Assembly: GCA_902774055.1 (NCBI GenBank)
Contig: CACYGX010000010.1
Coordinates: 62,001-126,000, forward strand
Length of the DNA stretch: 64,000 nucleotides
Origin: an uncultured Bacteroidales bacterium
GTDB lineage: Bacteria > Bacteroidota > Bacteroidia > Bacteroidales > Muribaculaceae
Direction of reading: 5' to 3'
Below, piece by piece: positions 44,535 to 59,713 of this stretch (position 1 is its first letter; each line of letters begins with the position of its first letter). A program made the position numbers and the translations under genes. Under the pieces are notes generated by a model. The model was not told the DNA's origin, did no database searches, and saw only the letters and a list, made by a program, of their open reading frames with translations.

Positions 44535-44668
44535 TATTTTCACGTTTTTCGCTGTGAAAGCTTAAATCCATTGCAAAAAAACGAACCTCCAGAAGCCAAA
44601 AACTTCAAACTTTGACCCTTAAACTCTAAACTTTATAGTATCTTTGCATCCAAATTCGATAAGGCAAT

Positions 44669-46533: not shown

Positions 46534-48735
46534 ATGATAAAAGACTGGTTGAATAAGCTGAAGAATCACAAGAAGAAGCGGGCCCTCTCGGCTATCGCTA
46601 TCATGCTGCTTGCCGGTGCGCTCATCGAGCTCATTTCGCTAGTTCAGTACAACTATGCCCACAGCATGGTAGAAGAAGGGCTTGATTACCGGGCCGAGAA
46701 CGAGATGACCCTAAAGGCGGTGTATGTCATTAATATGCTCAAGTCCCACGAGGACATGGTGCGCAACTACGTATGGCCCATCCAGCGCCAAATCAATCGC
46801 CCAGAGGTTATACCCAGGATCATCAAACGAGTAGTCTCGTCCAACGAAGACGTGATGACATGTTTTGTAGCCTTCATGCCAGGGTACTATTCCCAACACG
46901 ATAATTTGTTTGAACCCGTTGCCTTCCGTCGCAATGACAGCGTTTTCACCACACAGATTGCCAGTGAGTCGCATGACTACACTAAACGCGAGTATTACCA
47001 GGAAGCCGTCTTGAATAACAATGGCCATTGGAGCGACCCATATATGGATTCAGATGCTAGCGGCGAGTCTGTCACGACCTATGCTATTCCATTGACCGAT
47101 GACTCGGGGAAACCCATTGCCGCATTTGGTATCGACCTGTCCACCCAGTTCATCAACGATACCTTGAACACGCAGCACAACTTTCCTTCTACCTTTTTCC
47201 TGCTGCTCACCGAGGATGGCAAAATCATATCCCAACCCGACTCGAGCCATACCCAACAAAGTGAAGTTGATGCTGTAGTGAGAATGATCAATGACAGCAC
47301 CGTCGAGCGTGAATCCAGCAGTTCGGGACTCAGCAAAATCATCACGTTTAAAGACAAAAAGATGGGCACGGGATATGCCTACCATGCCTTCATTAAAGGC
47401 CAGCCCCACTGGCAAGTGGTGATGGTGTGCTATGATAAAGAGGTGTTCGCCAAGCTTAATGACATGCGTCGCAACATGTTGCTGCTCATGTTGGGAGCCT
47501 TCTCCCTGTTAGGGTTCATCATCTACCTCTTCAACCTGTATGTGAGACGGCTCCATCAATCCAACCTGATTAAGGAACGCTCGGACAGCGAATTGCGCGT
47601 TGCCCAAAGGATTCAGTCCGAAATGCTCCCCAGTAGCGACATCTCACGTGAGGACGTTGACGTGAGCGGCAAGCAAGTCACCGCGCTAGAGGTGGGCGGC
47701 GACCTGTATGACTATTTCATCCGCGACGAGAAACTATACTTCTGCATCGGTGACGTGAGTGGCAAGGGCGTGCCGTCCTCGCTGGTGATGGCTGTGGTAC
47801 ACTCCCAATTCCGCAGCGTTGCACAGCACGAGAGTAACCCAATGCGCATCATGCAGATCATCAACGAGACAGCCTGTGAGGGCAACGAGACGAATATGTT
47901 TGTCACGCTTTTCATCGGTGTACTTGACCTGCCCACAGGACGCCTGCGCTATTGCAATGCCGGCCACGACGCTCCGCTGCTCCTTGATGGTGACGTGAAA
48001 CTATTGAACGTCACTGCCAATCTGCCGTTGGGCGTAATCCGAGACTTCAAGTTTGTCAAGCAAGAGATCCAGTTGCCACAAGAATCGACCCTGCTATTCT
48101 ATACCGACGGTTTGACCGAGAATGCTGACACTGAGCACAATCTATTTGGCTTGCAGCGCATCATCGACACAGTAAAGACTTGTCAGGAGCAAAATCAAAC
48201 TTCTCCCATGGTGCTGATGGATACGCTTCACAACGAAGCCCTACAATTTGCCAAGGGAGCTCAACAGAGTGATGACTTGACGATGCTCGTCGTCCATTAT
48301 CACCGTCAAGACGAAGACCTTGTGCTGGACGAGAAACTGCCCTTGAGCAATGATGTGCGCCAGGTGCCCCAACTCAACGAATTTATCGAATCGGTGGGCG
48401 AGCGGTTAAACCTTGGCTCTGCAATAACATCTCAATTAAAATTGGCGGTTGAAGAGGCAGTGGTCAATGTGATGAATTACGCCTACCCCATCGGCACACA
48501 AGGTGACATCACGGTTGATGCACAAGCCACCGAGCAATGGCTGAAAATCATCATCACCGACCAGGGAAAGGCCTTTGACCCGACCCAGGGCAGCAACGCC
48601 GATACCACGCTCAGTGCCGAAGATAGGCCCATTGGCGGCTTGGGCATCCTGCTTGTCCAGCAACTGATGGATAGCATCAACTATGAGCGCCATGACGGCA
48701 AGAACGTGTTCACGATGAAAAAGTTTAGAACTTAG
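46534..48735 (+). CDS. Membrane sensor with SpoIIE/RsbU-type phosphatase and RsbW-like kinase domain
   Basis: A 733-residue signalling protein. TM1 is about 18-40, followed by a dCache-like periplasmic sensor (about 40-300; WSDPYMDSDASGESVTTYAIPL), TM2 (about 313-337) and a helix (LRVAQRIQSEMLPS) leading to a PP2C/SpoIIE phosphatase domain with metal ligands in EVGGDLYD, IGDVSGKG, YTDGLTE and SDDLT. The C-terminal domain (about 610-730) is an RsbW-type histidine-kinase-like ATPase (EEAVVNVMNYAYP, TDQGKAFDP, GGLGILLVQQL). Phosphatases of this class dephosphorylate STAS proteins, and anti-sigma kinases phosphorylate them; both activities appear in one chain, and a STAS gene follows. The input signal is unknown. 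Confidence 0.9.
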   Translation: MIKDWLNKLKNHKKKRALSAIAIMLLAGALIELISLVQYNYAHSMVEEGLDYRAENEMTLKAVYVINMLKSHEDMVRNYVWPIQRQINRPEVIPRIIKRVVSSNEDVMTCFVAFMPGYYSQHDNLFEPVAFRRNDSVFTTQIASESHDYTKREYYQEAVLNNNGHWSDPYMDSDASGESVTTYAIPLTDDSGKPIAAFGIDLSTQFINDTLNTQHNFPSTFFLLLTEDGKIISQPDSSHTQQSEVDAVVRMINDSTVERESSSSGLSKIITFKDKKMGTGYAYHAFIKGQPHWQVVMVCYDKEVFAKLNDMRRNMLLLMLGAFSLLGFIIYLFNLYVRRLHQSNLIKERSDSELRVAQRIQSEMLPSSDISREDVDVSGKQVTALEVGGDLYDYFIRDEKLYFCIGDVSGKGVPSSLVMAVVHSQFRSVAQHESNPMRIMQIINETACEGNETNMFVTLFIGVLDLPTGRLRYCNAGHDAPLLLDGDVKLLNVTANLPLGVIRDFKFVKQEIQLPQESTLLFYTDGLTENADTEHNLFGLQRIIDTVKTCQEQNQTSPMVLMDTLHNEALQFAKGAQQSDDLTMLVVHYHRQDEDLVLDEKLPLSNDVRQVPQLNEFIESVGERLNLGSAITSQLKLAVEEAVVNVMNYAYPIGTQGDITVDAQATEQWLKIIITDQGKAFDPTQGSNADTTLSAEDRPIGGLGILLVQQLMDSINYERHDGKNVFTMKKFRT

Positions 48736-48797
48736 AATTATTAATAAACTATAAACTGAGACACAAGTAATTGTTTCTCAATAAAAAAAAGATCATA

Positions 48798-49109
48798 ATG
48801 AAAACGATAATTGAAGAACTTGACGAAAAAACCATCGTCACCATGATTGGTTCACTCGACACCGCAGCAGCCATTGAGACCGAACAGGCATTAAAGCCCC
48901 TTACTACCAGGGAAGAGGCCAAGGACATCGAAATTGAATGCCAAGAGCTAGAGTATATCGCATCTAGCGGCCTGCGCATCCTGCTTGACGTGCTCAAGAA
49001 AAACAAGGCCAAAGGGCGTAGAGTTATCCTGCGCAACGTGAACGACGACATCAAGAACGTGTTCAACATCACGGGATTCATCAATCTGTTCGAATTTGAC
49101 CCCCGTTAA
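48798..49109 (+). CDS. STAS domain anti-sigma-factor-antagonist-like protein
   Basis: A 103-residue STAS protein (SpoIIAA/RsbV type). The motif EYIASSGLRILLD contains the serine pair S56-S57 where the phospho-switch serine lies in relatives. The fold is evident: IEIECQELEYI strand, then RRVILRNVNDDIKNVFNITGF. The ATG at 48798 replaces an upstream in-frame one at 48771 because it fits the domain start. It is the expected substrate of the preceding phosphatase/kinase, so the pair can run a partner switch. The downstream target, a sigma factor or another protein, is not in the window. The barrel gene starts 4 bp later. Confidence 0.88.
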   Translation: MKTIIEELDEKTIVTMIGSLDTAAAIETEQALKPLTTREEAKDIEIECQELEYIASSGLRILLDVLKKNKAKGRRVILRNVNDDIKNVFNITGFINLFEFDPR

Positions 49110-49112
49110 GCC

Positions 49113-50468
49113 ATGAATATCAATCATCTATCCATGAGGCAATGGCTTCTTGCGCTCATGGTGGCTTCATCAGTGTCTCTGGCGGGACAACCTGCCAGTG
49201 ACACCATTGCTGAGCCCAAAAACGAACTGAGCGTGGATCTGCAGCTTCTGGCTCGTGGTGAAACACGTTACGGAGGAATGACTCCCGAAACCACGGAAGA
49301 GACAGAGGAAGAAGAGGGCAAAGTCGCCAAGTCCCATTTCATCATGGGGCGTACCCGACTCGTCATCAACTACAAGCGCGACTGGCTCGAAGCCCGCGTC
49401 ACGCCACAACATTCAGGAATATGGGGACAAGCGGGAAAAGGTTCGCTGAACCTCTATGAGACTTGGGCCAAATTGACAACACGGTTCGGCCTGTTCGTCC
49501 AGCTGGGAAGAGTGGCACTCTCCTATGACGACGAGCGCATCATCGGCTCGGATGACTGGGCGATGGCTTCGCAGTCACACGATGTGCTAAGATTTGGATA
49601 TGAAGGCCACGGACACAAGGCTCACGTGATTCTCGCCTATAACCAGAATGCCGACGTGCTTGATGGCAACACCTATTATGTGGGTGGAGCGCAGCCCTAC
49701 AAGACGATGCAGGACCTGTGGTATCACTACGACTTCCAGAAGTTTCCCTTGGGTGTGTCGGTGTTGTTCATGAACATCGGCATGCAAAACATGGACAACG
49801 AGAACGTGAAACACACTACCCATTTCCAGCAACTGCTGGGTGGCTACCTGTCGTTCAGGCCTAAACGCTGGAACGTCGAGGCCTCCTATTACCACCAGAT
49901 GGGCAAGAATGAGACAAGCATGAAAATCGATGCGTGGATGGCGAGTGGCAAGGTTGAATTCTCACCAAAGCCCACCTACGGTTTTGTGGGCGGTTTTGAC
50001 TACTTGAGCGGTGACAAGTACTTTGCTGTTCCGCCTAAGGGCGGCATCGGCGTGATACGCCACGATGTGATTAGGGGATTCAGCACCGTTTACGGCTCTC
50101 ACCACAAGTTTTATGGCGCTATGGACTTCTTCTACGTGAGCACCTACCTGAATGGCTTCACGCCTGGTTTGCAGAACGCCTACATCGGAGGATTCTACTG
50201 CCCCATTCCTGGCCTCAAAATCGATGCCAGCTACCACAACCTCTCGACCGCAACCAAACTCAGAGACATAGACATGTTCTTGGGTCACGAGTTTGAATTT
50301 CAAACTTCCTATGCCATTACTCGCGATGTGGGAGTCATGTTGGGCGCGGCATTAATGTCGGGCTCCAAAACGATGGAACGCCTTAAACGTAACTCCGGCG
50401 ACAACACCCTGCGTTGGGGATGGATTGGATTGAGCGTCAATCCCCGCATCTTCACAACAAAATGGTAA
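49113..50468 (+). CDS. Outer-membrane beta-barrel protein, alginate-export-like
   Basis: A 451-residue protein with a signal peptide (MRQWLLALMVASSVSLA; an alternative start is the ATG at 49134) and a mature part of about 16-18 amphipathic strands ending in an aromatic residue (IFTTKW). VQLGRVALSYDDERIIGSDDWAMASQSHDVLRF resembles the LGRQ...GDxRxxG...FD stretch of the alginate-export porin family. It probably forms a pore for small solutes or glycans. It begins 4 bp after the STAS stop and ends 42 bp before the NRPS start, with no promoter-like box in that gap, so it is likely co-transcribed with both sides. Confidence 0.75.
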   Translation: MNINHLSMRQWLLALMVASSVSLAGQPASDTIAEPKNELSVDLQLLARGETRYGGMTPETTEETEEEEGKVAKSHFIMGRTRLVINYKRDWLEARVTPQHSGIWGQAGKGSLNLYETWAKLTTRFGLFVQLGRVALSYDDERIIGSDDWAMASQSHDVLRFGYEGHGHKAHVILAYNQNADVLDGNTYYVGGAQPYKTMQDLWYHYDFQKFPLGVSVLFMNIGMQNMDNENVKHTTHFQQLLGGYLSFRPKRWNVEASYYHQMGKNETSMKIDAWMASGKVEFSPKPTYGFVGGFDYLSGDKYFAVPPKGGIGVIRHDVIRGFSTVYGSHHKFYGAMDFFYVSTYLNGFTPGLQNAYIGGFYCPIPGLKIDASYHNLSTATKLRDIDMFLGHEFEFQTSYAITRDVGVMLGAALMSGSKTMERLKRNSGDNTLRWGWIGLSVNPRIFTTKW

Positions 50469-50510
50469 AATAATCTCTTGAATTAACTCTTAAACTCCAA
50501 AAATATTAAT

Positions 50511-53500
50511 ATGGAACTGTCAGCACCATTATCAAAATCACAATTTGGAATCTATGTAGAATGTGTAGGCCACAAGGGCGAGCCCTATTATAATCTGCCC
50601 TTTATCCACCAGATCGACCGTTCACTGGACGGAGAGCGCCTGTTGGCTGCCGTCGAGACGGCATTCAAGGCCCACCCCACCCTGTTCACCCGCATCAAGG
50701 TGAATGATGACGGCGAACCCATCCAGACGATTGACATGGCCAACGAGCAGTGGTCACTTGCCATAGAGGACATCACCGATATCGAGCAAGAAAAAGAACG
50801 GTTCATGCAACCCTTCGACCTCGAGGGCGGACGCTTGTTCCACATCAACCTAAAGCGCGATAGTGAGCATTATTACCTCTTCCTTGACACTCACCACATT
50901 ATTTCAGACGGCACCTCGTTGCTGATCCTGCTACAAGATATCGACAGGGCATATCATGGTGAGGAAATTGCCCCTGAGGAGATGACAATGTTTGAGTTGG
51001 CTCAGAACGAGGCCCAACAACGCGAGACGCCAGCATTTGAAGAGGCTAAGAAGTGGTATGCAGCAAACTTTGACTGTGGCGACACCTTCACCCAGTTCAT
51101 GCCTGACCTGGAAGAGCCCGAGCGCTGCAAGGGCAGCATGTTGCGCACCCTCTCGATTGACTTGAGCCGCGTGGATGACTACTGCAAGCAGAACGGCGTG
51201 TTCAAGAGCACGCTGTTCACGACCGCCTACGCCTTCTTGCTGGCAAAGTTCAACAATGAGCAGGAATCACTGTTCAACACCGTCTATAACGGCCGTACCG
51301 ACAAACGCTTCGCCCGCTCGATGGGTATGACAGTCAAGACGCTGCCTGCTTATGCAAAATTCACCAACGAGACGACCGTTCTGGAACTGCTGCAACAAGG
51401 GCAGGACCAGATGAGCGGATGCCGTGAACATGAGGTGTACGCTTACACCGACTTGATGACGGACTTGAACCTGCAGACCAACTCGATGTTTGCATGGCAC
51501 GGCAAATTGTTTGAGAACGCAACGATGGGCGACAAGCCCATACAATCGATTCGCCTGAGTTTCGATACGCTTGATGATGCGCTCTACATGAAGGTCTTTA
51601 TCCAAGACAACAAAGTTCATGCCGAAGCCGAATTCAACGCCAACGAATACTCACGCGACCTCATTGGCCAGATTCTGGAAAGCTATGAGGCCGTGATCGA
51701 GGGTTTCCTGGCCCAAGAATACCTGCGCGACATCGACATTGCCACGGCAAGCCAGGTAGCCATCCTTGACAGTTTCAACCCTGGCGAGCTGGATTATGAC
51801 GACAGCCAGACCATTGTCTCGCTGTTCCGCCAGCAGGTCAAGGCCACACCCGACGCTATTGCCGTCGTTTATACGGACAAGCATTTCACCTATACCCAGG
51901 TTGACGAGATCAGCGATCGCATTGCCGCCCACATTGCCAGCAAAGGTCTGGGTGCCGAGGACGTTGTGTCGGTGCTCATTCCCCGCTGTGAGTGGATGCC
52001 TATCGCCTCGATAGGTGTGCTCAAGGCAGGTTGTGCCTACCAGCCGCTTGACCCGAGTTACCCCAAGGAGCGACTCAACTTCATGATGCAAGACGCCAGC
52101 GCAAAGATGCTCATTGCCGACGAGGAATTGCGTCCCATCGTTGATGAGTACCAAGGCGAGGTGCTGTTGACCAAGGATATCATGGGCCTGCCAGCTGCGG
52201 CAGCGCCCCAGGTGGACATCAAGCCCGACCAGTTGTTCATCCTGCTTTATACCTCAGGCTCGACAGGTGTACCCAAGGGTTGCCAGTTGACCCACCGCAA
52301 TCTTGTGGCCTTCTGCCACTGGTACCAATACTTGTTGAATCTTCAGTCTGAGCACAAGGTGGCAGCCTATGCCAGCTATGGTTTTGACGCGAACATGATG
52401 GACACGTACCCCACGTTGACCTGCGGTGCAACATTATATATTATTCCTGAGGACTTACGCCTCGACCTTATTGCCCTCAACGAGTATTTTGAGCAGAATG
52501 GCATCACCCACTCGTTCATGACGACGCAAGTGGGTTACCAGTTTGCTACCAATGCCGAGAACAAGACCCTGCAGTATCTCTTGACCGGTGGTGAGAAACT
52601 GGCATCATTAACGCCACCGCAGGGCTTCAAACTCTACAACATCTATGGTCCCACCGAGACCACGGTCTTTATTACCTATTATCATGTCGATAAGAAGTTG
52701 AAAGAAATTCCTATCGGCAAATCGCTTAAGAACATGCGCCTGTATATCGTTGATCCTCAAGGTCATCGTCTGCCAGTGGGCGCAGCAGGTGAATTGTGGG
52801 CAGCAGGTCCTCAAGTGAGTCGTGGCTACCTGAACCGCCCCGAGAAGACTGCCGAGGTCTATATTACCAACCCCTTCACGACCGACGCCAAATACAATCG
52901 CATCTATCGCACGGGCGACATCGTTCGTTACTTGCCCTCGGGCGACATCCAGTTTGTAGGACGCCGCGACGGACAGGTCAAGATTCGCGGTTTCCGCATC
53001 GAGCTGAAAGAGGTCGAGAGCATCATCCGCGAGTTCCCTGGCATCAAGGATGCTACGGTACAGGCCTTTGACGAGGAGGGCGGCGGCAAGTTCATCGCTG
53101 CCTACATCGTGAGCGACGAACAGGTGGACATCGAGGCGCTGAACAACTTCATCATGGACGAGAAACCGCCCTACATGGTGCCTGCCGTTACCATGCAGAT
53201 CGATGCTATCCCCCTGAACCAGAACCAGAAGGTAAACAAGCGCGCCCTGCCCAAGCCCGAGAAAAAGGCTGAAGCAATCGAGAACGTGAATGTGCCCATG
53301 AACGTGCTGGAAGAGGAATTGCACCAGATTGTTGCCGATATCGTCAACAACACCGAATTTGGCGTCACAACGCCACTGGGCTATGCAGGCCTGACCTCAA
53401 TCTCGGCCATCAAATTGGCCGTACAGGTCAACAAGCGCTTTGGCGTAAGCCTTGACTCGAAAAATCTGGTCAAGACAGGAACTATCCAGTCTATCGAGAA

Positions 53501-56500
53501 CGAGATTCTGACAGCGATGCTTTCAGGTGAACATACTGAAGCCAAAGACACGGCACCGAGTCAAAAGCAAGAATCGCCCACCAGCGTGCCCCTGTCATAC
53601 GCTCAGACGGGTGTCTATTTTGACTGCTTGAAGAATCCCGCTTCTACTATCTATAACATCCCCTACCTGCTCTCGTATCCCGATGGCATCGACGCCAACA
53701 GTCTTGCAAGTGCCGTGAAACGCGTCATCGAGTCACATCCCGAAATGAGCGTCCACTTCGCGACCGAGGGCGATACCATTGTCCAAACCACCGAGGGCAG
53801 TCTGCCTGTCGAGGTAACCGTTACCGAGATGAGCGATGAGGACCTGAATAATTACAAGAAAGAGTTTGTTCGTCCCTTCAATCTGCAGAAACCACCTCTC
53901 TATCGTGCCGAGGTGGTCAAGACCGACAGTGGCGTTCACCTCTTGATAGATGTACACCACCTGGTGTTTGACGGTGGTTCGGGCGACCTGTTTATCAGGC
54001 AAATCAGCACGGCTCTCGAGGGCAAGGAGATAGAGAAAGAGACCTACAACTATCTGGACTTTGTCACCGACCAGCAAGAGGCCGAACAGAGCGAGTCGTT
54101 CAAGGCCTCGCAGCAGTTCTTTGCCGAGAAGTTGCAGACTTGTGAAGGCGCCAGCGAGATTCCCGCCGACTTGCCCAAGACCGATGTACAAGGGTGGATT
54201 GGCGAGGCCGTTTGTCCTATTGACCTTGACAAGGCCGCAGCCTTCTGCCGCCAGCACGAAATTACTCCTGCCCACCTGTTCCTTGCCGCTACGTCCTATG
54301 TAGTCTCGCGCTATACCAACAACCGCGACGTCTATCTATGTACCGTCAGCAGCGGACGCAGCAACCTCAAGATTGCCGATACCGTGGGTATGTTTGTCAA
54401 CACGCTCGCCCTGGGCATGAGCATCGATGACGTGACCGTTAGCGAATTCCTGAAACAGACCAGCGGCACCTTTGACCAGACGCTGCGGCACGAGGATTAC
54501 CCCTTTGCCCGCATCGCTACCGATTACGGTTTCCGTCCCTCCATTGCCTACGCTTATCAGGTGGGCGTGCTCTCGGAATATACCGTAAACGGCAAGCCTA
54601 TTGGCCAGGAAGTGCTCGAGCTTAACGTTCCCAAGTTCAAAATCAATATCAAAATCGAGACCTGCGGCGTGGTTGTCGAGTATGATGACTCCATCTACAG
54701 CGAACGCGTGGGACGCGGACTTGCCGAGAGCATCGTCGCCGTCGCCAACAGGATGATGGAACAACCGCAGGAGCGCCTGCGCCACTTGTCCATTGTCAGC
54801 GACAATCAGGAGCTCGAGTTGAGCCAGTTGCGCCAGACCGCTACGGGTGACGCTCCATTCACCTTCTTCCATGAGTGCATCGGCCACTTTGCACAAACGC
54901 AGCCCGACCACGAGGCACTGGTAGCCACCGACGCCCGTTTCACCTACCGTGAGATGGACGAAGTGACCAACCGCATTGCCGCTGCCCTGCGCCGCCGTGG
55001 CGTACAAGAGCGCGACCGTGTAGCCCTGCTGCTGCCCCGCACCAGCCGTCTCGTGCTGGCGCTGTTCGGTGTGCTGAAATCAGGCGCCGCCTACATTCCT
55101 TGTGATCCCGAATATCCCGCTGACCGCGTGAAACTCATCCTCGAGGACAGCGAGGCGCGTTATATCATCACTACAGCCGACCGCATGGACGATGTTCCCG
55201 AAGGTAAGGCCATCAACGTGGAAGAACTGATTAACGACGACAACGACGGCAAGGTAACAACGGACATCACCCCCGATGACCTCGCTTACCTGATTTATAC
55301 CAGCGGTTCAACGGGCCGTCCCAAGGGTGTTATGCTGCACCACAAGGGCATCTGCAACTACCTCTACGGCCATCCCGCTAACGTGTTTGCCAACGGTGTG
55401 TTGACCGATGCCAAGCGCATCTTGAGCGTGACGACAATCTCGTTTGACGCCGCCCTGCAAGATATCGGCACAGCATTCTTCAACGGCAAGACGCTCATCG
55501 TGGCTACCGAGGAGCAGGCCAACAACCCGCTCGACCTGGCACGCCTCATCAACGAGGAACACATCAATATGGTATCGGGCACGCCATCGCGCTGGATGAC
55601 GTGGCTGACGAGTGAAGACTTCTGCGATGCCATCTGCCGCATCAACATCGCACGTGCTGGTGGTGAGAAATTCTCCGACCAACTGCTCGGCCAACTCAGG
55701 AAAGTGACCAAGGCCCGCATCTTTAACTGCTATGGTCCCACCGAAATCACTGTCGCCTCGAACAACAAGGAATTGACTAACGCTGAACTCGTCACTGTGG
55801 GCAAACCGCAGTTGAACGTCATCGAGTATATCGTTGACCAGGACGGCAACGAGTTGCCCGTGGGCGTTGTTGGCGAACTCTACATCGGCGGACGTGGCGT
55901 GGCTCATGGCTACAACAATCTGGACGAAATGACCCGCGAGCGATTTGTGGACTACCACGGCACACGCATCTATAAGTCAGGCGACTATGCCAAGTGGCTG
56001 CCCGATGGCGACGTGGTCATCCTGGGCCGCACCGACCACCAGATCAAGTTGCGTGGCCTGCGCATCGAGTTGGGCGAGATCGAGAACGTGATTCTCAAGG
56101 TTGAGGGACTGAAGAAGGTGGTCATCCTCATCCGCAAGATTAATGACAAGGAGCACTTGTGCGCTTATTATACCGCTGACCGCGAAATTGCCCCCGATGC
56201 CCTCAAGGCCGAGATTTCGAAGAGTCTAACACAATACATGGTGCCCACGGCCTATCTGCAACTCAAGGAGATGCCCATGACTCCCAACGGCAAGACCGAC
56301 GTCAAGGCGCTTCCCGAGCCCGAATTGGCCATCAGTTCGGCCTATGTAGAACCCGCCAACGACACTGAGCGTACCATTTGTGACATCTTTGCTGATATCC
56401 TGCAAATGGACAAGGTGGGTGCGACCGACAACTTCTTTGAGCTGGGCGGCACCTCGCTTGTCGTGACCCGCATCATTATCGAGGCCGACAAGGCCGGATT

Positions 56501-57767
56501 GCACGTGGCTTACGGTGATGTATTTGCCAACCCCACGCCTCGCAAACTGGCTCGCCTGATTACTGGTGAGAGTGTCGATGAGGGCGATGCCGAAATCACC
56601 GCATTTGACTACACCGCCATCAACAACCTGTTGCAACGCAACGTGCTGGAGAACTTCCGCAAGGGCGAACGCCAGGAACTGGGCGACGTACTCGTGACGG
56701 GCGCTACAGGTTACCTGGGAATCCACATCCTGCGCGAGCTCATCGACTCCGATGCTAAGAATATCTACTGCCTCGTGCGCGGTAAGACCCTCGAGGCTGC
56801 CGAGCGCCGATTGAAGTCGCTGTTGTTCTACTATTTTGACAACTCATTCACCGACTTGTTCGGCCAGCGCTTGCACATCGTCATGGGCGACGTGACCAGT
56901 GATTTCAGCGAAGGCCTGAAGGTGGATACCATCTTTAACTGCGCCGCCGTTGTTAAGCACTTTAGCGAAGGAACTGAAATCGAGGACGTTAACATCGGCG
57001 GCGCCCAGCGCTGTGTGGACTACTGCGTGAAGACTGGCGCCAAACTCATCCACGTCTCCACGGCGAGCACACGCGGCCTGTGGGCAGGCGAGATCAAGAC
57101 CGACATCTTCACCGAGCAGCGGCTGTACATGGGCCAGTTCTTGGGTAATAAGTACATTTACTCCAAGTTTATGGCCGAGCGCCTCATCCTGAATGCTATC
57201 GCACTCCATGGCTTGAATGCCAAGATCATGCGTGTGGGCAATCTGGCGGCACGTTCGACCGACGGCGAGTTCCAGGCCAACTTTGCCACCAACTCGTTCA
57301 TGGGACGCATCAAGGTCTATAATATGCTGGGGTGCTGTCCCCACGGCATGCGCAACGTGCAGGTGGAATTTTCACCCATCAACGAGGTGGCCCATGCCAT
57401 CGTGCTGTTGAGTTCGACCCCCAAGGATTGCACCGTATTCCATCCTTACAATATCCATGGCCAGTTCCTGGGCGACGTGCTCATGGGACTCACCACGGTG
57501 GGTGATGGTGTGAAGTTTGTCGAGCAGGAAGAGTTCCAGCAGGCTATGGATGCAGCCAAAGACGATCCCGTGAAGGCCAAGTCCATGTCGAGCTTGCTCG
57601 CCTATCAGGATATGGCTCACGGACAGAAGACCGCCGACGTGAAACGCGATAACAACTACACGACCCAAGTCCTTTACCGCTTGGACTTCTCGTGGTCGCA
57701 GACCTCATGGGACTATGTAGAGCGAATGTTGACGGCTATCAGTTCTCTCGGATTCTTCGATATGTAG
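50511..57767 (+). CDS. Two-module nonribosomal peptide synthetase, C-A-T-C-A-T-R
   Basis: A 2418-residue megasynthase. C1 has HHIISDG at 128-134. A1 runs about 440-930, with YTSGSTGVPKG around 580, YGPTE at 712-716 and a variant A10 NQKVNKRALP at 905. T1 is an atypical carrier motif, GLTSIS (Ser 963). C2 has HHLVFDG at 1149-1155. A2 has YTSGSTGRPKG around 1597, YGPTE at 1741 and NGKTDVKALP at 1926. T2 is LGGTSL (Ser 1982). A thioester reductase domain follows, with GATGYLG at 2064-2070 and YIYSK at 2215-2219. Two amino acids are joined and the product is released by NADPH reduction as an aldehyde or alcohol. The leading C domain suggests N-acylation or an upstream donor. All catalytic motifs are present. 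Confidence 0.95.
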   Translation: MELSAPLSKSQFGIYVECVGHKGEPYYNLPFIHQIDRSLDGERLLAAVETAFKAHPTLFTRIKVNDDGEPIQTIDMANEQWSLAIEDITDIEQEKERFMQPFDLEGGRLFHINLKRDSEHYYLFLDTHHIISDGTSLLILLQDIDRAYHGEEIAPEEMTMFELAQNEAQQRETPAFEEAKKWYAANFDCGDTFTQFMPDLEEPERCKGSMLRTLSIDLSRVDDYCKQNGVFKSTLFTTAYAFLLAKFNNEQESLFNTVYNGRTDKRFARSMGMTVKTLPAYAKFTNETTVLELLQQGQDQMSGCREHEVYAYTDLMTDLNLQTNSMFAWHGKLFENATMGDKPIQSIRLSFDTLDDALYMKVFIQDNKVHAEAEFNANEYSRDLIGQILESYEAVIEGFLAQEYLRDIDIATASQVAILDSFNPGELDYDDSQTIVSLFRQQVKATPDAIAVVYTDKHFTYTQVDEISDRIAAHIASKGLGAEDVVSVLIPRCEWMPIASIGVLKAGCAYQPLDPSYPKERLNFMMQDASAKMLIADEELRPIVDEYQGEVLLTKDIMGLPAAAAPQVDIKPDQLFILLYTSGSTGVPKGCQLTHRNLVAFCHWYQYLLNLQSEHKVAAYASYGFDANMMDTYPTLTCGATLYIIPEDLRLDLIALNEYFEQNGITHSFMTTQVGYQFATNAENKTLQYLLTGGEKLASLTPPQGFKLYNIYGPTETTVFITYYHVDKKLKEIPIGKSLKNMRLYIVDPQGHRLPVGAAGELWAAGPQVSRGYLNRPEKTAEVYITNPFTTDAKYNRIYRTGDIVRYLPSGDIQFVGRRDGQVKIRGFRIELKEVESIIREFPGIKDATVQAFDEEGGGKFIAAYIVSDEQVDIEALNNFIMDEKPPYMVPAVTMQIDAIPLNQNQKVNKRALPKPEKKAEAIENVNVPMNVLEEELHQIVADIVNNTEFGVTTPLGYAGLTSISAIKLAVQVNKRFGVSLDSKNLVKTGTIQSIENEILTAMLSGEHTEAKDTAPSQKQESPTSVPLSYAQTGVYFDCLKNPASTIYNIPYLLSYPDGIDANSLASAVKRVIESHPEMSVHFATEGDTIVQTTEGSLPVEVTVTEMSDEDLNNYKKEFVRPFNLQKPPLYRAEVVKTDSGVHLLIDVHHLVFDGGSGDLFIRQISTALEGKEIEKETYNYLDFVTDQQEAEQSESFKASQQFFAEKLQTCEGASEIPADLPKTDVQGWIGEAVCPIDLDKAAAFCRQHEITPAHLFLAATSYVVSRYTNNRDVYLCTVSSGRSNLKIADTVGMFVNTLALGMSIDDVTVSEFLKQTSGTFDQTLRHEDYPFARIATDYGFRPSIAYAYQVGVLSEYTVNGKPIGQEVLELNVPKFKINIKIETCGVVVEYDDSIYSERVGRGLAESIVAVANRMMEQPQERLRHLSIVSDNQELELSQLRQTATGDAPFTFFHECIGHFAQTQPDHEALVATDARFTYREMDEVTNRIAAALRRRGVQERDRVALLLPRTSRLVLALFGVLKSGAAYIPCDPEYPADRVKLILEDSEARYIITTADRMDDVPEGKAINVEELINDDNDGKVTTDITPDDLAYLIYTSGSTGRPKGVMLHHKGICNYLYGHPANVFANGVLTDAKRILSVTTISFDAALQDIGTAFFNGKTLIVATEEQANNPLDLARLINEEHINMVSGTPSRWMTWLTSEDFCDAICRINIARAGGEKFSDQLLGQLRKVTKARIFNCYGPTEITVASNNKELTNAELVTVGKPQLNVIEYIVDQDGNELPVGVVGELYIGGRGVAHGYNNLDEMTRERFVDYHGTRIYKSGDYAKWLPDGDVVILGRTDHQIKLRGLRIELGEIENVILKVEGLKKVVILIRKINDKEHLCAYYTADREIAPDALKAEISKSLTQYMVPTAYLQLKEMPMTPNGKTDVKALPEPELAISSAYVEPANDTERTICDIFADILQMDKVGATDNFFELGGTSLVVTRIIIEADKAGLHVAYGDVFANPTPRKLARLITGESVDEGDAEITAFDYTAINNLLQRNVLENFRKGERQELGDVLVTGATGYLGIHILRELIDSDAKNIYCLVRGKTLEAAERRLKSLLFYYFDNSFTDLFGQRLHIVMGDVTSDFSEGLKVDTIFNCAAVVKHFSEGTEIEDVNIGGAQRCVDYCVKTGAKLIHVSTASTRGLWAGEIKTDIFTEQRLYMGQFLGNKYIYSKFMAERLILNAIALHGLNAKIMRVGNLAARSTDGEFQANFATNSFMGRIKVYNMLGCCPHGMRNVQVEFSPINEVAHAIVLLSSTPKDCTVFHPYNIHGQFLGDVLMGLTTVGDGVKFVEQEEFQQAMDAAKDDPVKAKSMSSLLAYQDMAHGQKTADVKRDNNYTTQVLYRLDFSWSQTSWDYVERMLTAISSLGFFDM

Positions 57768-57827
57768 CCCAAAACTCTAGATTTTCTGGAATATCTAGTT
57801 TTACTAGACTGAAAATTAACAGTATTA

Positions 57828-59147
57828 ATGGAAAACGATATCAAGACTCAATTCTATAGGTTCCTGTGGGCCTATATCCTGGTCGCCTTGTCGGCTTGCC
57901 TTGGCAATGTGGTTGACGGCATTATCGTGGGTAACCTCATCTGCGAGGATGGCGTGAGCGCCATTAACCTGGCCAAGCCCATCAACCAGTTCATTTTCAC
58001 CCTGCACCTGCTCATTAATGCAGGTGCGGGTATGCTCGTGGCTTATGCCATCGGGCAGAATAAATTGGATGATGCGCGACGATTTTTCACCCGTGCCCTG
58101 AGCCTGAGTGTGGGCATAGGCTTACTGCTGGCCATTGTGGGCGGCCTGATGTTCCCCGAGCAGATTTCTAAGATGCTGTGTAAGCATGAGCAGATTTTGC
58201 CCCTAACACGCGAATATACCGATATCTTGCTCATCGGTAGTCCCGCCTACATCCTCATGTGGGGCCTATCGACGATGGTGGGTGTTGATGGTAGCCCGCG
58301 GTTGGTATCGCTGGCTGTCATCGTCGACAATGTGGTGAACCTCGTGCTTGATATCGTTTTCATTCAATGGTTTGGCTGGGGCATTGCGGGTTCCTCGGCA
58401 GCAACAGTGGTGGGTCATCTGGTAGGCATTGCCATCCTGCTGTGCCACTGGCGCAAACCCGAAAATCGGCGTTTGCTGCCCCTGTTTACGACCGACGGCA
58501 TGGGCGCATCGTTGAAACAGATTATCTCCCAGGGCGCTCCGCTTGCCGTTGCCTCGATCTGCTTGACGCTGCTCCTGTTCTTTGCCAACAAGATTTTCAT
58601 GTCCACCACGGGACGTACGGGTATCTTTGTATTTGCCCTGTGCATGAACCTGCTACAAGTCTATAACCTGTTCTTGTCAGGTACCTGCCAGACGCTGCAA
58701 TCGCTCGGTGCTGTTCAGGTGGGCAAGAAGGACGACGAAGGGGTGCGCTCCGTCATCAAGCGGGGTTTCCGCTTCATTACTGCCGCAATGGTCATCACAT
58801 GCTTGCTCGTGTTCTTGTACCCACAGGGCATTGCACGACTGTTTGGCTGTGATGAACCCGAGATGCTTACCCAAAGCGTGCCCGCCCTGCGCGTGTTTGC
58901 CTTGAGTTTCATCCCCTTCTGCTACATCTATGTGCTGATGATCGTCTATAAGCTCTACAGCCAGCACCGCATGGCGCTCTTCATCTCGTTTGCATTATCG
59001 CTCACGGTGATTCCCGTGCTCTGGCTCATGGCACGCGTGGTGCCGCAGTTCATCTGGTACAGTTACCTTATAGCCTACATCATTGAGGCCGTGGTTATCT
59101 ATGCCCTGCACAAGGGGCGGCACATCCAGTTCCAGCTCCCTGCATGA
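57828..59147 (+). CDS. MATE family efflux transporter
   Basis: A 439-residue inner-membrane protein with 12 segments in two similar halves, beginning ILVALSACLGNVVDGIIVGNLI, the TM1 of MATE/MatE-type (DinF-NorM) exporters. These proteins expel organic compounds using a sodium or proton gradient. The gene is 60 bp after the NRPS and overlaps the phosphopantetheinyl transferase gene by 4 bp, so export of the NRPS product, or self-protection from it, is the best reading of its role. A short IR (ACTCTAGAT/ATCTAGTTT region, about 57770-57815) lies in the gap. Confidence 0.9.
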   Translation: MENDIKTQFYRFLWAYILVALSACLGNVVDGIIVGNLICEDGVSAINLAKPINQFIFTLHLLINAGAGMLVAYAIGQNKLDDARRFFTRALSLSVGIGLLLAIVGGLMFPEQISKMLCKHEQILPLTREYTDILLIGSPAYILMWGLSTMVGVDGSPRLVSLAVIVDNVVNLVLDIVFIQWFGWGIAGSSAATVVGHLVGIAILLCHWRKPENRRLLPLFTTDGMGASLKQIISQGAPLAVASICLTLLLFFANKIFMSTTGRTGIFVFALCMNLLQVYNLFLSGTCQTLQSLGAVQVGKKDDEGVRSVIKRGFRFITAAMVITCLLVFLYPQGIARLFGCDEPEMLTQSVPALRVFALSFIPFCYIYVLMIVYKLYSQHRMALFISFALSLTVIPVLWLMARVVPQFIWYSYLIAYIIEAVVIYALHKGRHIQFQLPA

Positions 59148-59713
59148 TCTATTATGACGATCACATCCGTGATTTTGACCTGCCGGCAGCGTTGAGCGAG
59201 GTGAGTCCGCAGCGACGCCAATACGCTCTACGCTACCGGCAGGAAATTGATCAGCGCCTTAGTGTGGCAGCCTACAGGCTGCTGCATCGTGCCTTGTGTC
59301 ACGAGTACGGCATCACTGAGATGCCACAGTTTGACTACGACGACAAGGGCAAACCCTCGCTTAAAGGGCACCCCGGCATCCACTTCAGCCTGAGCCATTG
59401 CCGTCATGCTGTGGTGTGTGCTGTGAGCGACCAGCCCGTCGGCATCGACATCGAGTCACTGGACATCATCGATGAGCACGTTGTATCAAGCGTGATGAGC
59501 GAGAACGAAATACGACTAATGGCAACTGCCGGAGACAGAGACATCGCTTTTTACCGCCTGTGGACCATGAAGGAGAGCCTGTACAAACTCACGGGTGATG
59601 ATCATGGCGGCGATATCAAGCACATGCTTGAGCAGGCGCCACCAGTGACCTTTGAGACTATTGTTTACCCACACAGTGTATGCACAATCTGCCATTACAA
59701 AACAAAAAAATAA
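59144..59713 (+). CDS. 4'-phosphopantetheinyl transferase (Sfp-type)
   Basis: A 189-residue Sfp/EntD-like enzyme that moves phosphopantetheine from coenzyme A to the carrier-domain serines of the NRPS. FSLSHC (81-86), GIDIE (100-104, Mg-binding D/E) and WTMKESLYK (140-148) are the three family signatures. Its ATG overlaps the MATE stop (ATGA), giving translational coupling. Its place at the end of NRPS-MATE makes it the dedicated activating enzyme of the NRPS; a primary role in fatty-acid synthesis is less likely. Confidence 0.93.
   Translation: MIYYDDHIRDFDLPAALSEVSPQRRQYALRYRQEIDQRLSVAAYRLLHRALCHEYGITEMPQFDYDDKGKPSLKGHPGIHFSLSHCRHAVVCAVSDQPVGIDIESLDIIDEHVVSSVMSENEIRLMATAGDRDIAFYRLWTMKESLYKLTGDDHGGDIKHMLEQAPPVTFETIVYPHSVCTICHYKTKK

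What the first reader, a model, noticed from the sequence alone, without database searches (positions are those of the whole stretch)
50511..59713. Compact NRPS-MATE-phosphopantetheinyl transferase cluster predicted to make a reductively released dipeptide
A single 2418-residue C-A-T-C-A-T-R synthetase is followed by a MATE exporter and an Sfp-type enzyme whose genes overlap by ATGA. Biosynthesis, activation and export are thus all present in 9.2 kb. A terminal reductase domain is established to release peptide aldehydes or alcohols; dipeptide aldehydes from gut bacteria are known protease inhibitors and cyclise to pyrazinones. Such an NRPS in a Bacteroidales genome is uncommon, and the starter condensation domain makes an N-acyl dipeptide possible. 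The product is inference.
Basis: partly seen in the sequence, partly recalled or inferred. Interest (0 to 1): 0.9.

Follow-up and report, generated by a model that had tools for sequence, protein, structure and literature searches.

The report
Bacteroidales peptide-aldehyde synthetase with private switch

Summary
In detail: a 2418-aa C-A-T-C-A-T-R synthetase, a MATE exporter and an Sfp-type PPTase lie at 50511-59713. It is not decaying: catalytic motifs hold in an alignment of the window protein and 58 relatives (49-88% identity) and dN/dS is 0.07-0.14. The product class (N-acyl dipeptide aldehyde) fits characterised gut clusters (PMC8518294, passages) but is inferred. Three same-strand genes upstream belong to the system: a dCache-SpoIIE phosphatase-RsbW kinase fusion (46534-48735), a STAS protein (48798-49109) and an AlgE-fold barrel (49113-50468). 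In 149 family genomes, strong SpoIIE occurs in 13 of 13 synthetase carriers and 2 of 136 others; the barrel in 11 of 13 and 0 of 136. Gene order varies while linkage persists. The genome shows one SpoIIE domain, one relative of this STAS protein, and no SigB/F-type sigma over the cut-off, so the switch's output is unknown. A published Methanobrevibacter ruminantium NRPS has phosphatase, STAS-type and MatE neighbours too (PMC2812497, passages). New variant of a known kind.

The parts
46534..48735 (+). Membrane sensor switch: periplasmic double-Cache sensor, SpoIIE-type PP2C phosphatase and RsbW-like HATPase kinase in one 733-aa protein
   Evidence: Pfam dCache_1/MCP-like_PDC_1, SpoIIE, HATPase_c_2; only SpoIIE match in the genome; sensor model pLDDT 88 matches solved dCache domains; catalytic motifs kept in the variants printed for 53 sequences
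48798..49109 (+). STAS (anti-sigma-antagonist-like) protein, 103 aa, with the SSG phospho-acceptor motif
   Evidence: Pfam STAS E 3e-15; only relative of this protein found in its genome; SSG in all variants printed (56 of 58 sequences)
49113..50468 (+). Outer-membrane beta-barrel of the AlgE (alginate exporter) fold, proposed exit channel
   Evidence: Pfam Alginate_exp E 4.6e-6; model pLDDT 80, top PDB matches AlgE, best E 8e-15; in 11 of 13 NRPS-positive and 0 of 136 NRPS-negative family genomes
50511..57767 (+). Dimodular NRPS C-A-T-C-A-T-R, 2418 aa
50511..51785 (+). C1, N-terminal condensation domain (HHIISDG, residues 128-134), starter by position
51801..53270 (+). A1, pocket code D A M F L G I V F K (aliphatic residue guessed)
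   Evidence: GrsA numbering and code tables recalled
53376..53411 (+). T1 carrier-serine motif LGYAGLTSISAI (residues 956-967)
53571..54830 (+). C2 (HHLVFDG, residues 1149-1155)
54870..56315 (+). A2, pocket code D A Q S A A C V A K (aromatic residue guessed)
   Evidence: GrsA numbering and code tables recalled
56373..56561 (+). T2 (FFELGGTSL), residues 1955-2017
56694..57764 (+). R, terminal thioester reductase (VTGATGYLG; YIYSK)
57828..59147 (+). MATE exporter
   Evidence: Pfam MatE E 3.2e-29
59144..59713 (+). Sfp-type phosphopantetheinyl transferase (GIDIE, WTMKE)
   Evidence: Pfam ACPS E 1.6e-11; best NCBIfam AusB 80.6 bits, below its cut-off of 225

Best explanation
This is a six-gene system (46534-59713). 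The PPTase primes the synthetase; C1 acylates the first amino acid, probably with a fatty acyl group; C2 makes one peptide bond; the R domain releases the chain with NAD(P)H as a dipeptide aldehyde. The MATE protein moves it across the inner membrane and the AlgE-fold barrel lets it out. A periplasmic dCache sensor senses an unknown ligand and sets the balance between its own phosphatase and kinase domains acting on the STAS serine, which switches production or export on or off. Shown by computation: gene content, intact active sites, purifying selection, co-occurrence and linkage. Inferred: acyl cap, residue identities, aldehyde rather than alcohol, direction of transport, and what the STAS protein acts on.
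For: Domain layout. Motifs in 59 aligned sequences (window plus 58 relatives): C2 HHxxxDG, T1 serine, T2 GGTS, R glycine motif and YxxSK in 59 of 59, C1 HHxxxDG in 56 of 59. Closest solved T-R didomain 6vtj, 328 bits, ahead of AusA 4f6l, 155 bits. No other C domain found in the genome (94% complete), so no upstream NRPS is seen to feed C1. dN/dS 0.07-0.14 in six computable pairs. SpoIIE and STAS each in 45 of 50 loci that hold the NRPS N-terminus, barrel in 42, MATE in 37, PPTase in 27 (thresholds). Family draw of 149: strong SpoIIE (E<1e-40) in 13 of 13 NRPS-positive and 2 of 136 others; barrel (E<=1e-10) in 11 of 13 and 0 of 136 (Fisher). SpoIIE on the NRPS contig within about 8 kb in 12 of 13, in changing order. 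In G146, where it is not, SpoIIE and barrel sit together on another contig. No match to a Bacteroidetes-type promoter pattern (recalled consensus) lies between 46486 and 59713. Gut NRPS clusters make N-acyl dipeptide aldehydes (PMC8518294, passages).
Against: No product, expression or biochemical evidence. C1 did not group with the N-terminal C domains of Mycetohabitans or other plasmid NRPSs in a small tree, and 3 of 59 relatives have HHxxxDA in C1 (L059, L063, L099). Order-wide, SpoIIE is a general module (match at E<=1e-20 in 180 of 344 genomes), and only 5 of 13 genomes with a related T-R didomain are seen to have it within 10 kb (for G213 and G320 the SpoIIE place was not listed). Five of 50 close loci lack SpoIIE/STAS nearby. 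Fisher tests do not correct for shared ancestry; by genus the numbers are small (5 of 5 against 2 of 25 for SpoIIE; 3 of 5 against 0 of 25 for the barrel). Three genomes counted as negative hold shorter A-C- or A-R-spanning proteins at 25-29% identity (G099, G071, G118). The PPTase is not found in 23 of 50 loci; all 14 genomes checked have a PPTase-family match, but 7 have only one. R domains can also make alcohols (PMC12783407, passages). The barrel's top Foldseek hit has TM 0.63 on the model length, so its cargo is unknown.
Confidence: 0.6

Rival explanations
1. The synthetase makes an unacylated dipeptide aldehyde that cyclises to a pyrazinone, as aureusimine synthetase does; C1 is silent or vestigial.
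For: Best NCBIfam name is AusA (1179 bits) and the PPTase is nearest AusB; the R domain resembles the AusA R domain. Three of 59 relatives have HHxxxDA in C1.
Against: AusA is below its cut-off of 2500 bits, and AusA starts with an A domain (recalled). C1 keeps HHxxxDG in 56 of 59 aligned sequences, which a vestigial domain would not.
Confidence: 0.15
2. The R domain makes a four-electron reduction and the product is a dipeptide alcohol.
For: R domains can do either (PMC12783407, passages).
Against: The characterised gut relatives named in PMC8518294 and AusA give aldehydes (passages).
Confidence: 0.15
3. SpoIIE-STAS and the barrel are unrelated neighbours (envelope or stress functions) that sit beside the NRPS by descent only.
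For: SpoIIE-like proteins are common in the order (180 of 344) and two family genomes have SpoIIE-STAS without NRPS (G004, G144).
Against: The barrel is in none of 136 NRPS-negative genomes; linkage survives changes of gene order; the one same-genus genome without NRPS (G095) shows neither; switch-type companions also flank a methanogen NRPS.
Confidence: 0.12
4. The product is an autoinducer-like signal of gut communities, perhaps sensed back by the dCache receptor, rather than a protease inhibitor.
For: The sensor fold matches dCache receptors, several with amino acids bound; rumen dCache_1 proteins, serine phosphatases among them, have been proposed as receptors of the signal AI-2 (PMC9540692, passages); the locus is a make-export-sense set.
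Against: No ligand evidence; the sensors diverge to 19% identity while the enzymes stay at 49% or more. If the ligand is AI-2 or an amino acid, the product is not sensed back.
Confidence: 0.2

Closest known systems
Gut N-acyl dipeptide-aldehyde NRPS clusters (Guo 2017; Clostridium BGC0001686, ruminopeptin of Ruminococcus bromii)
   Same: N-acyl dipeptide aldehyde products from gut NRPSs (PMC8518294, PMC12327764, passages). The C-A-T-C-A-T-R layout of the characterised clusters is recalled; the primary papers are not held.
   Different: Host is Bacteroidales; AlgE-fold barrel and fused dCache-SpoIIE-kinase plus STAS in the locus; whether the characterised clusters have such neighbours was not checked; A codes not matched to known ones.
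Methanobrevibacter ruminantium mru_0068 NRPS cluster
   Same: Two C-A-T modules, terminal domain called thioesterase in the text and thioester reductase in the Fig. S8 legend, first C read as N-acylating; MatE, serine phosphatases and an anti-sigma-factor antagonist beside it (PMC2812497, passages).
   Different: Archaeal, so no outer-membrane barrel; PPTase and kinase lie elsewhere (mru_0513-0516). Its sequence was not compared here, except through PDB 6vtj, whose source is recalled.
Aureusimine/phevalin synthetase AusA with AusB
   Same: Dimodular, R-terminated, with a dedicated PPTase (PMC8210680, passages).
   Different: No N-terminal C domain (recalled); the window protein scores below the family cut-off.
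SypE/SypA partner switch of Vibrio fischeri
   Same: Phosphatase and kinase activities in one protein acting on a STAS protein whose target is unknown (PMC8256260, passages).
   Different: Here the input is a periplasmic dCache domain, not a receiver domain (SypE layout recalled), and the linked genes are an NRPS pathway.
AlgE alginate exporter (PF13372)
   Same: Barrel fold: the 16 best Foldseek hits are AlgE entries.
   Different: 12-13% identity; Pfam score 26.1 against a cut-off of 25.2; no polysaccharide genes in the operon.

Membership tests
Reductively releasing dimodular NRPS (C-A-T-C-A-T-R) | Domain order with intact carrier serines and R catalytic Tyr/Lys | tested here: met
Gut N-acyl dipeptide-aldehyde family | N-terminal C domain acting as acyl starter | tested here: inconclusive
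   No other C domain in the genome; own clade, not with reference N-terminal C domains
Gut N-acyl dipeptide-aldehyde family | Close sequence kinship with BGC0001686 or rup NRPS | not tested
   Those sequences were not fetched; the papers are not held
Gut N-acyl dipeptide-aldehyde family | Aldehyde product | not testable with these tools
   Needs enzyme assay or mass spectrometry
Aureusimine synthetase AusA (NF047350) | Score over the curated cut-off of 2500 bits | tested here: not met
   1179 bits
SpoIIE/RsbW/STAS partner switch | PP2C metal motifs, kinase N and G boxes, STAS phospho-serine | tested here: met
   (by sequence only)
SpoIIE/RsbW/STAS partner switch | A SigB/F-type sigma factor as target (canonical systems) | tested here: not met
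   Best TIGR02980 score 122 bits, cut-off 234, in a 94% complete genome
Alginate_exp / AlgE barrel | Pfam gathering score and barrel fold | tested here: met
   26.1 bits against 25.2; AlgE top Foldseek hits

The most novel reading that the evidence does not exclude
A sigma-factor-free partner switch is the private on/off control of a class of gut peptide-aldehyde signals: the same kind of SpoIIE-STAS module travels with reductive NRPSs in Bacteroidales and in rumen methanogens, and in these Gram-negatives a dedicated AlgE-like barrel has been recruited as the outer-membrane exit for a nonribosomal peptide. The STAS protein would act directly on the synthetase or exporter, or on an unrecognised regulator.
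Probability: 0.2. Interest if true: 0.82.

Novelty: new variant of a known kind. Interest (0 to 1): 0.58.

Why it matters
If right, it gives a genetic handle on when gut and rumen Bacteroidales make peptide aldehydes, a product type that inhibits cathepsins and proteasomes in vitro (PMC8518294, passages). It names a candidate dedicated outer-membrane exporter for a nonribosomal peptide, and a control module whose parts also flank a methanogen NRPS. Such products could shape protein breakdown and competition in the rumen.

Tried and rejected
Frame error, repeated in frame. Guo 2017, Schneider and Balskus 2018 and Deshpande 2021 are not held; statements on them rest on recall, reference lists or passages in other papers. 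Reference NRPSs from plasmids gave no labelled starter C domain that groups with C1. A general link of SpoIIE-STAS with aldehyde-making LuxC operons, suggested by G004 and G415, did not hold: of 9 order genomes with strong LuxC (E<1e-50), only G415 and G216 have a listed SpoIIE place on the same contig within about 10 kb. Decay or artefact rejected. Base composition gives no sign of recent import: NRPS GC 0.546, window 0.534. Terminator scan at chance (16 against 15.7 expected) and sigma-70 scan (23 against 14.0, sd 4.3) are not used as evidence. Literature: two PMC searches for NRPS with SpoIIE/STAS or anti-sigma and phosphatase terms (4 papers, 23 papers, 12 listed) gave no listing that joins a bacterial NRPS with this switch; of the papers listed I looked at passages of PMC8256260, PMC9540692 and PMC2812497, the last being the methanogen case. 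The other listed papers, and 11 unlisted ones, were not read. A third search (9 papers listed, none read) was on rumen NRPS and peptide aldehydes.

Full report
WHAT IS THERE. The three genes reported are present at the stated coordinates. The first is a dimodular synthetase, C-A-T-C-A-T-R, intact in its catalytic motifs. In an alignment of 59 full-length proteins (the window's and 58 relatives, 49-88% identical to it; six pairs among the relatives are over 96% alike, so they are not all independent), the C2 motif, both carrier serines, the R glycine motif and the R Tyr/Lys are kept in 59 of 59, and C1 HHxxxDG in 56 of 59; L059, L063 and L099 have HHxxxDA. Pairwise dN/dS between the window gene and six relatives is 0.07 to 0.14; a seventh pair was saturated and gave no value. 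The synthetase holds the only two C domains found in its genome (94% complete, 54 contigs), so no upstream NRPS is seen that could feed C1.

THE UNIT IS LARGER. Directly upstream, on the same strand and with gaps of 62, 3 and 42 bases, lie a 733-aa protein with a double-Cache sensor, a SpoIIE-type PP2C phosphatase and an RsbW-like HATPase (46534-48735), a 103-aa STAS protein (48798-49109) and a 451-aa protein (49113-50468). The last is predicted as a beta-barrel (pLDDT 80); its 16 best PDB matches are AlgE entries, the best with E 8e-15 and TM 0.63 on the model length. The sensor model (pLDDT 88) matches solved dCache domains; several of these carry amino acids, but the ligand here is unknown. 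Rumen dCache_1 proteins, serine phosphatases among them, have been proposed as AI-2 receptors (PMC9540692, passages). The Bacteroidetes-type promoter pattern (recalled) has 12 matches at 10 sites in the window (0.84 expected); one lies before typA (44611-44646) and none between 46486 and 59713, which fits a single transcript but is no proof.

LINKAGE AND CO-OCCURRENCE. Of 53 loci found by a scan of the species-genome collection with short peptide patterns, 50 hold the NRPS N-terminus. SpoIIE and STAS are each in 45 of these, the barrel in 42, MATE in 37 and PPTase in 27 (score thresholds set); misses include loci cut by contig ends, and the loci are relatives of one another. In a draw of 149 genomes of the family (30 genera), 13 hold a strong relative of the synthetase, among them 9 of the 10 genomes of this genus. 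Three others (G099, G071, G118) hold shorter proteins spanning several domains at 25-29% identity and were counted as negative. A strong SpoIIE match (E<1e-40) occurs in all 13 and in 2 of the other 136 (G004, G144); two more (G092, G119) match at about 1e-29, and weaker ones are not counted. The barrel (E<=1e-10) occurs in 11 of the 13, not in G026 and G101, and in none of the 136. Fisher P is 6e-17 and 6e-15 by genome, and 1.5e-4 and 2.5e-3 by genus; neither corrects for descent. SpoIIE lies on the NRPS contig within about 8 kb in 12 of 13, upstream or downstream and in varied order. In G146 it lies on another contig beside the barrel. G095, the one same-genus genome without the synthetase, shows neither.

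LIMITS OF THAT LINK. In 344 genomes of the order, a SpoIIE-like protein is common (180 of 344 at E<=1e-20), so the module is general and has been attached to this pathway. A related T-R didomain occurs in 13 of 344, and SpoIIE is seen within 10 kb of it in 5 of these 13 (G000, G411, G400, G465, G216); for G213 and G320 the SpoIIE place was not listed, and G308 has no SpoIIE match. Five of the 50 close loci lack SpoIIE/STAS nearby. In the window's own genome, the SpoIIE domain and the STAS relative are single matches. No SigB/F-type sigma passes the cut-off; the best match, 122 bits against 234, is probably the primary sigma. Hence the STAS output is unknown, as for SypA (PMC8256260, passages).

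PRODUCT. Pocket codes read by motif (GrsA numbering recalled) are DAMFLGIVFK for A1 and DAQSAACVAK for A2. The A2 code DAQS[VCA]ACVAK is shared by 42 of the 59; the exact A1 code of the window occurs in it alone, most others having S in place of L. I guess an aliphatic residue first and an aromatic one second; this is weak. In a small tree, C1 sits in a clade (support 0.998) of first C domains of dimodular relatives, apart from C2 and from reference N-terminal C domains; the first C domains of L096 and L163, also N-terminal, fall outside it, in a wider clade (0.963) that also holds internal C domains of the trimodular L097 and L145. Those trimodular forms place an A-T module before such a C domain, so acylation by C1 is likely from position, not proven. 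Gut NRPS clusters yield N-octanoyl-Met-Phe aldehyde (Clostridium BGC0001686 expressed in E. coli) and ruminopeptin, an N-acyl Leu-Glu aldehyde (PMC8518294, passages).

KINSHIP AND HABITAT. The closest solved T-R didomain is 6vtj (328 bits), ahead of AusA (155 bits). I recall 6vtj as the M. ruminantium NRPS; the paper is not held, though its title, on an archaeal PCP-R didomain, stands in two reference lists. Leahy et al. 2010 describe mru_0068 with two C-A-T modules, flanked by serine phosphatases, an anti-sigma factor antagonist and MatE; the text says thioesterase, the Fig. S8 legend thioester reductase (PMC2812497, passages). Of the 53 record titles, 9 name a ruminant host or gut part, 29 carry RUG codes (recalled as rumen genomes) and 15 do not tell; the source of the window itself is not given. 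NRPS clusters in rumen Bacteroidaceae were already counted in bulk (934) by Anderson and Fernando 2021 (PMC8241843, passages), so the existence of such genes is not new. What I did not find in print, within the listings, is the SpoIIE-STAS-barrel association in Bacteria.

VERDICT. An intact member of a known product class with a set of dedicated partners that I did not find reported. Confidence is high for the gene content and co-occurrence, moderate for the aldehyde, and low for residue identities and the switch's target.

Noticed in passing
L087:6749-17240 (G004) and L153:144-10185 (G415): SpoIIE-STAS next to LuxE, a LuxC-AMP-ligase fusion and a GNAT protein with a possible RsbW-like N-terminal part: another reductive pathway with the same kind of switch.
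   Followed up: partly
L093, L097, L145: Trimodular relatives with an A domain before the first C domain, ending in T-R, with SpoIIE and STAS beside them.
   Followed up: partly
L074 and L076: Two synthetase genes in one locus, in tandem in L074 (2420 and 2415 aa) and separated in L076 (one cut by the locus end), suggesting duplication and two products.
   Followed up: no
L060, L062: PPTase match placed between the STAS and barrel matches instead of at the end.
   Followed up: no
window:60009-64000: RND adaptor and pump genes start 295 bases after the PPTase; among the 53 loci only one weak adaptor match (27%, L056, about 8 kb from the NRPS) was seen, so they are probably not part of the system.
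   Followed up: partly
L100 (G079:C99): A second SpoIIE locus without NRPS in a genome that also has the NRPS-linked one.
   Followed up: no
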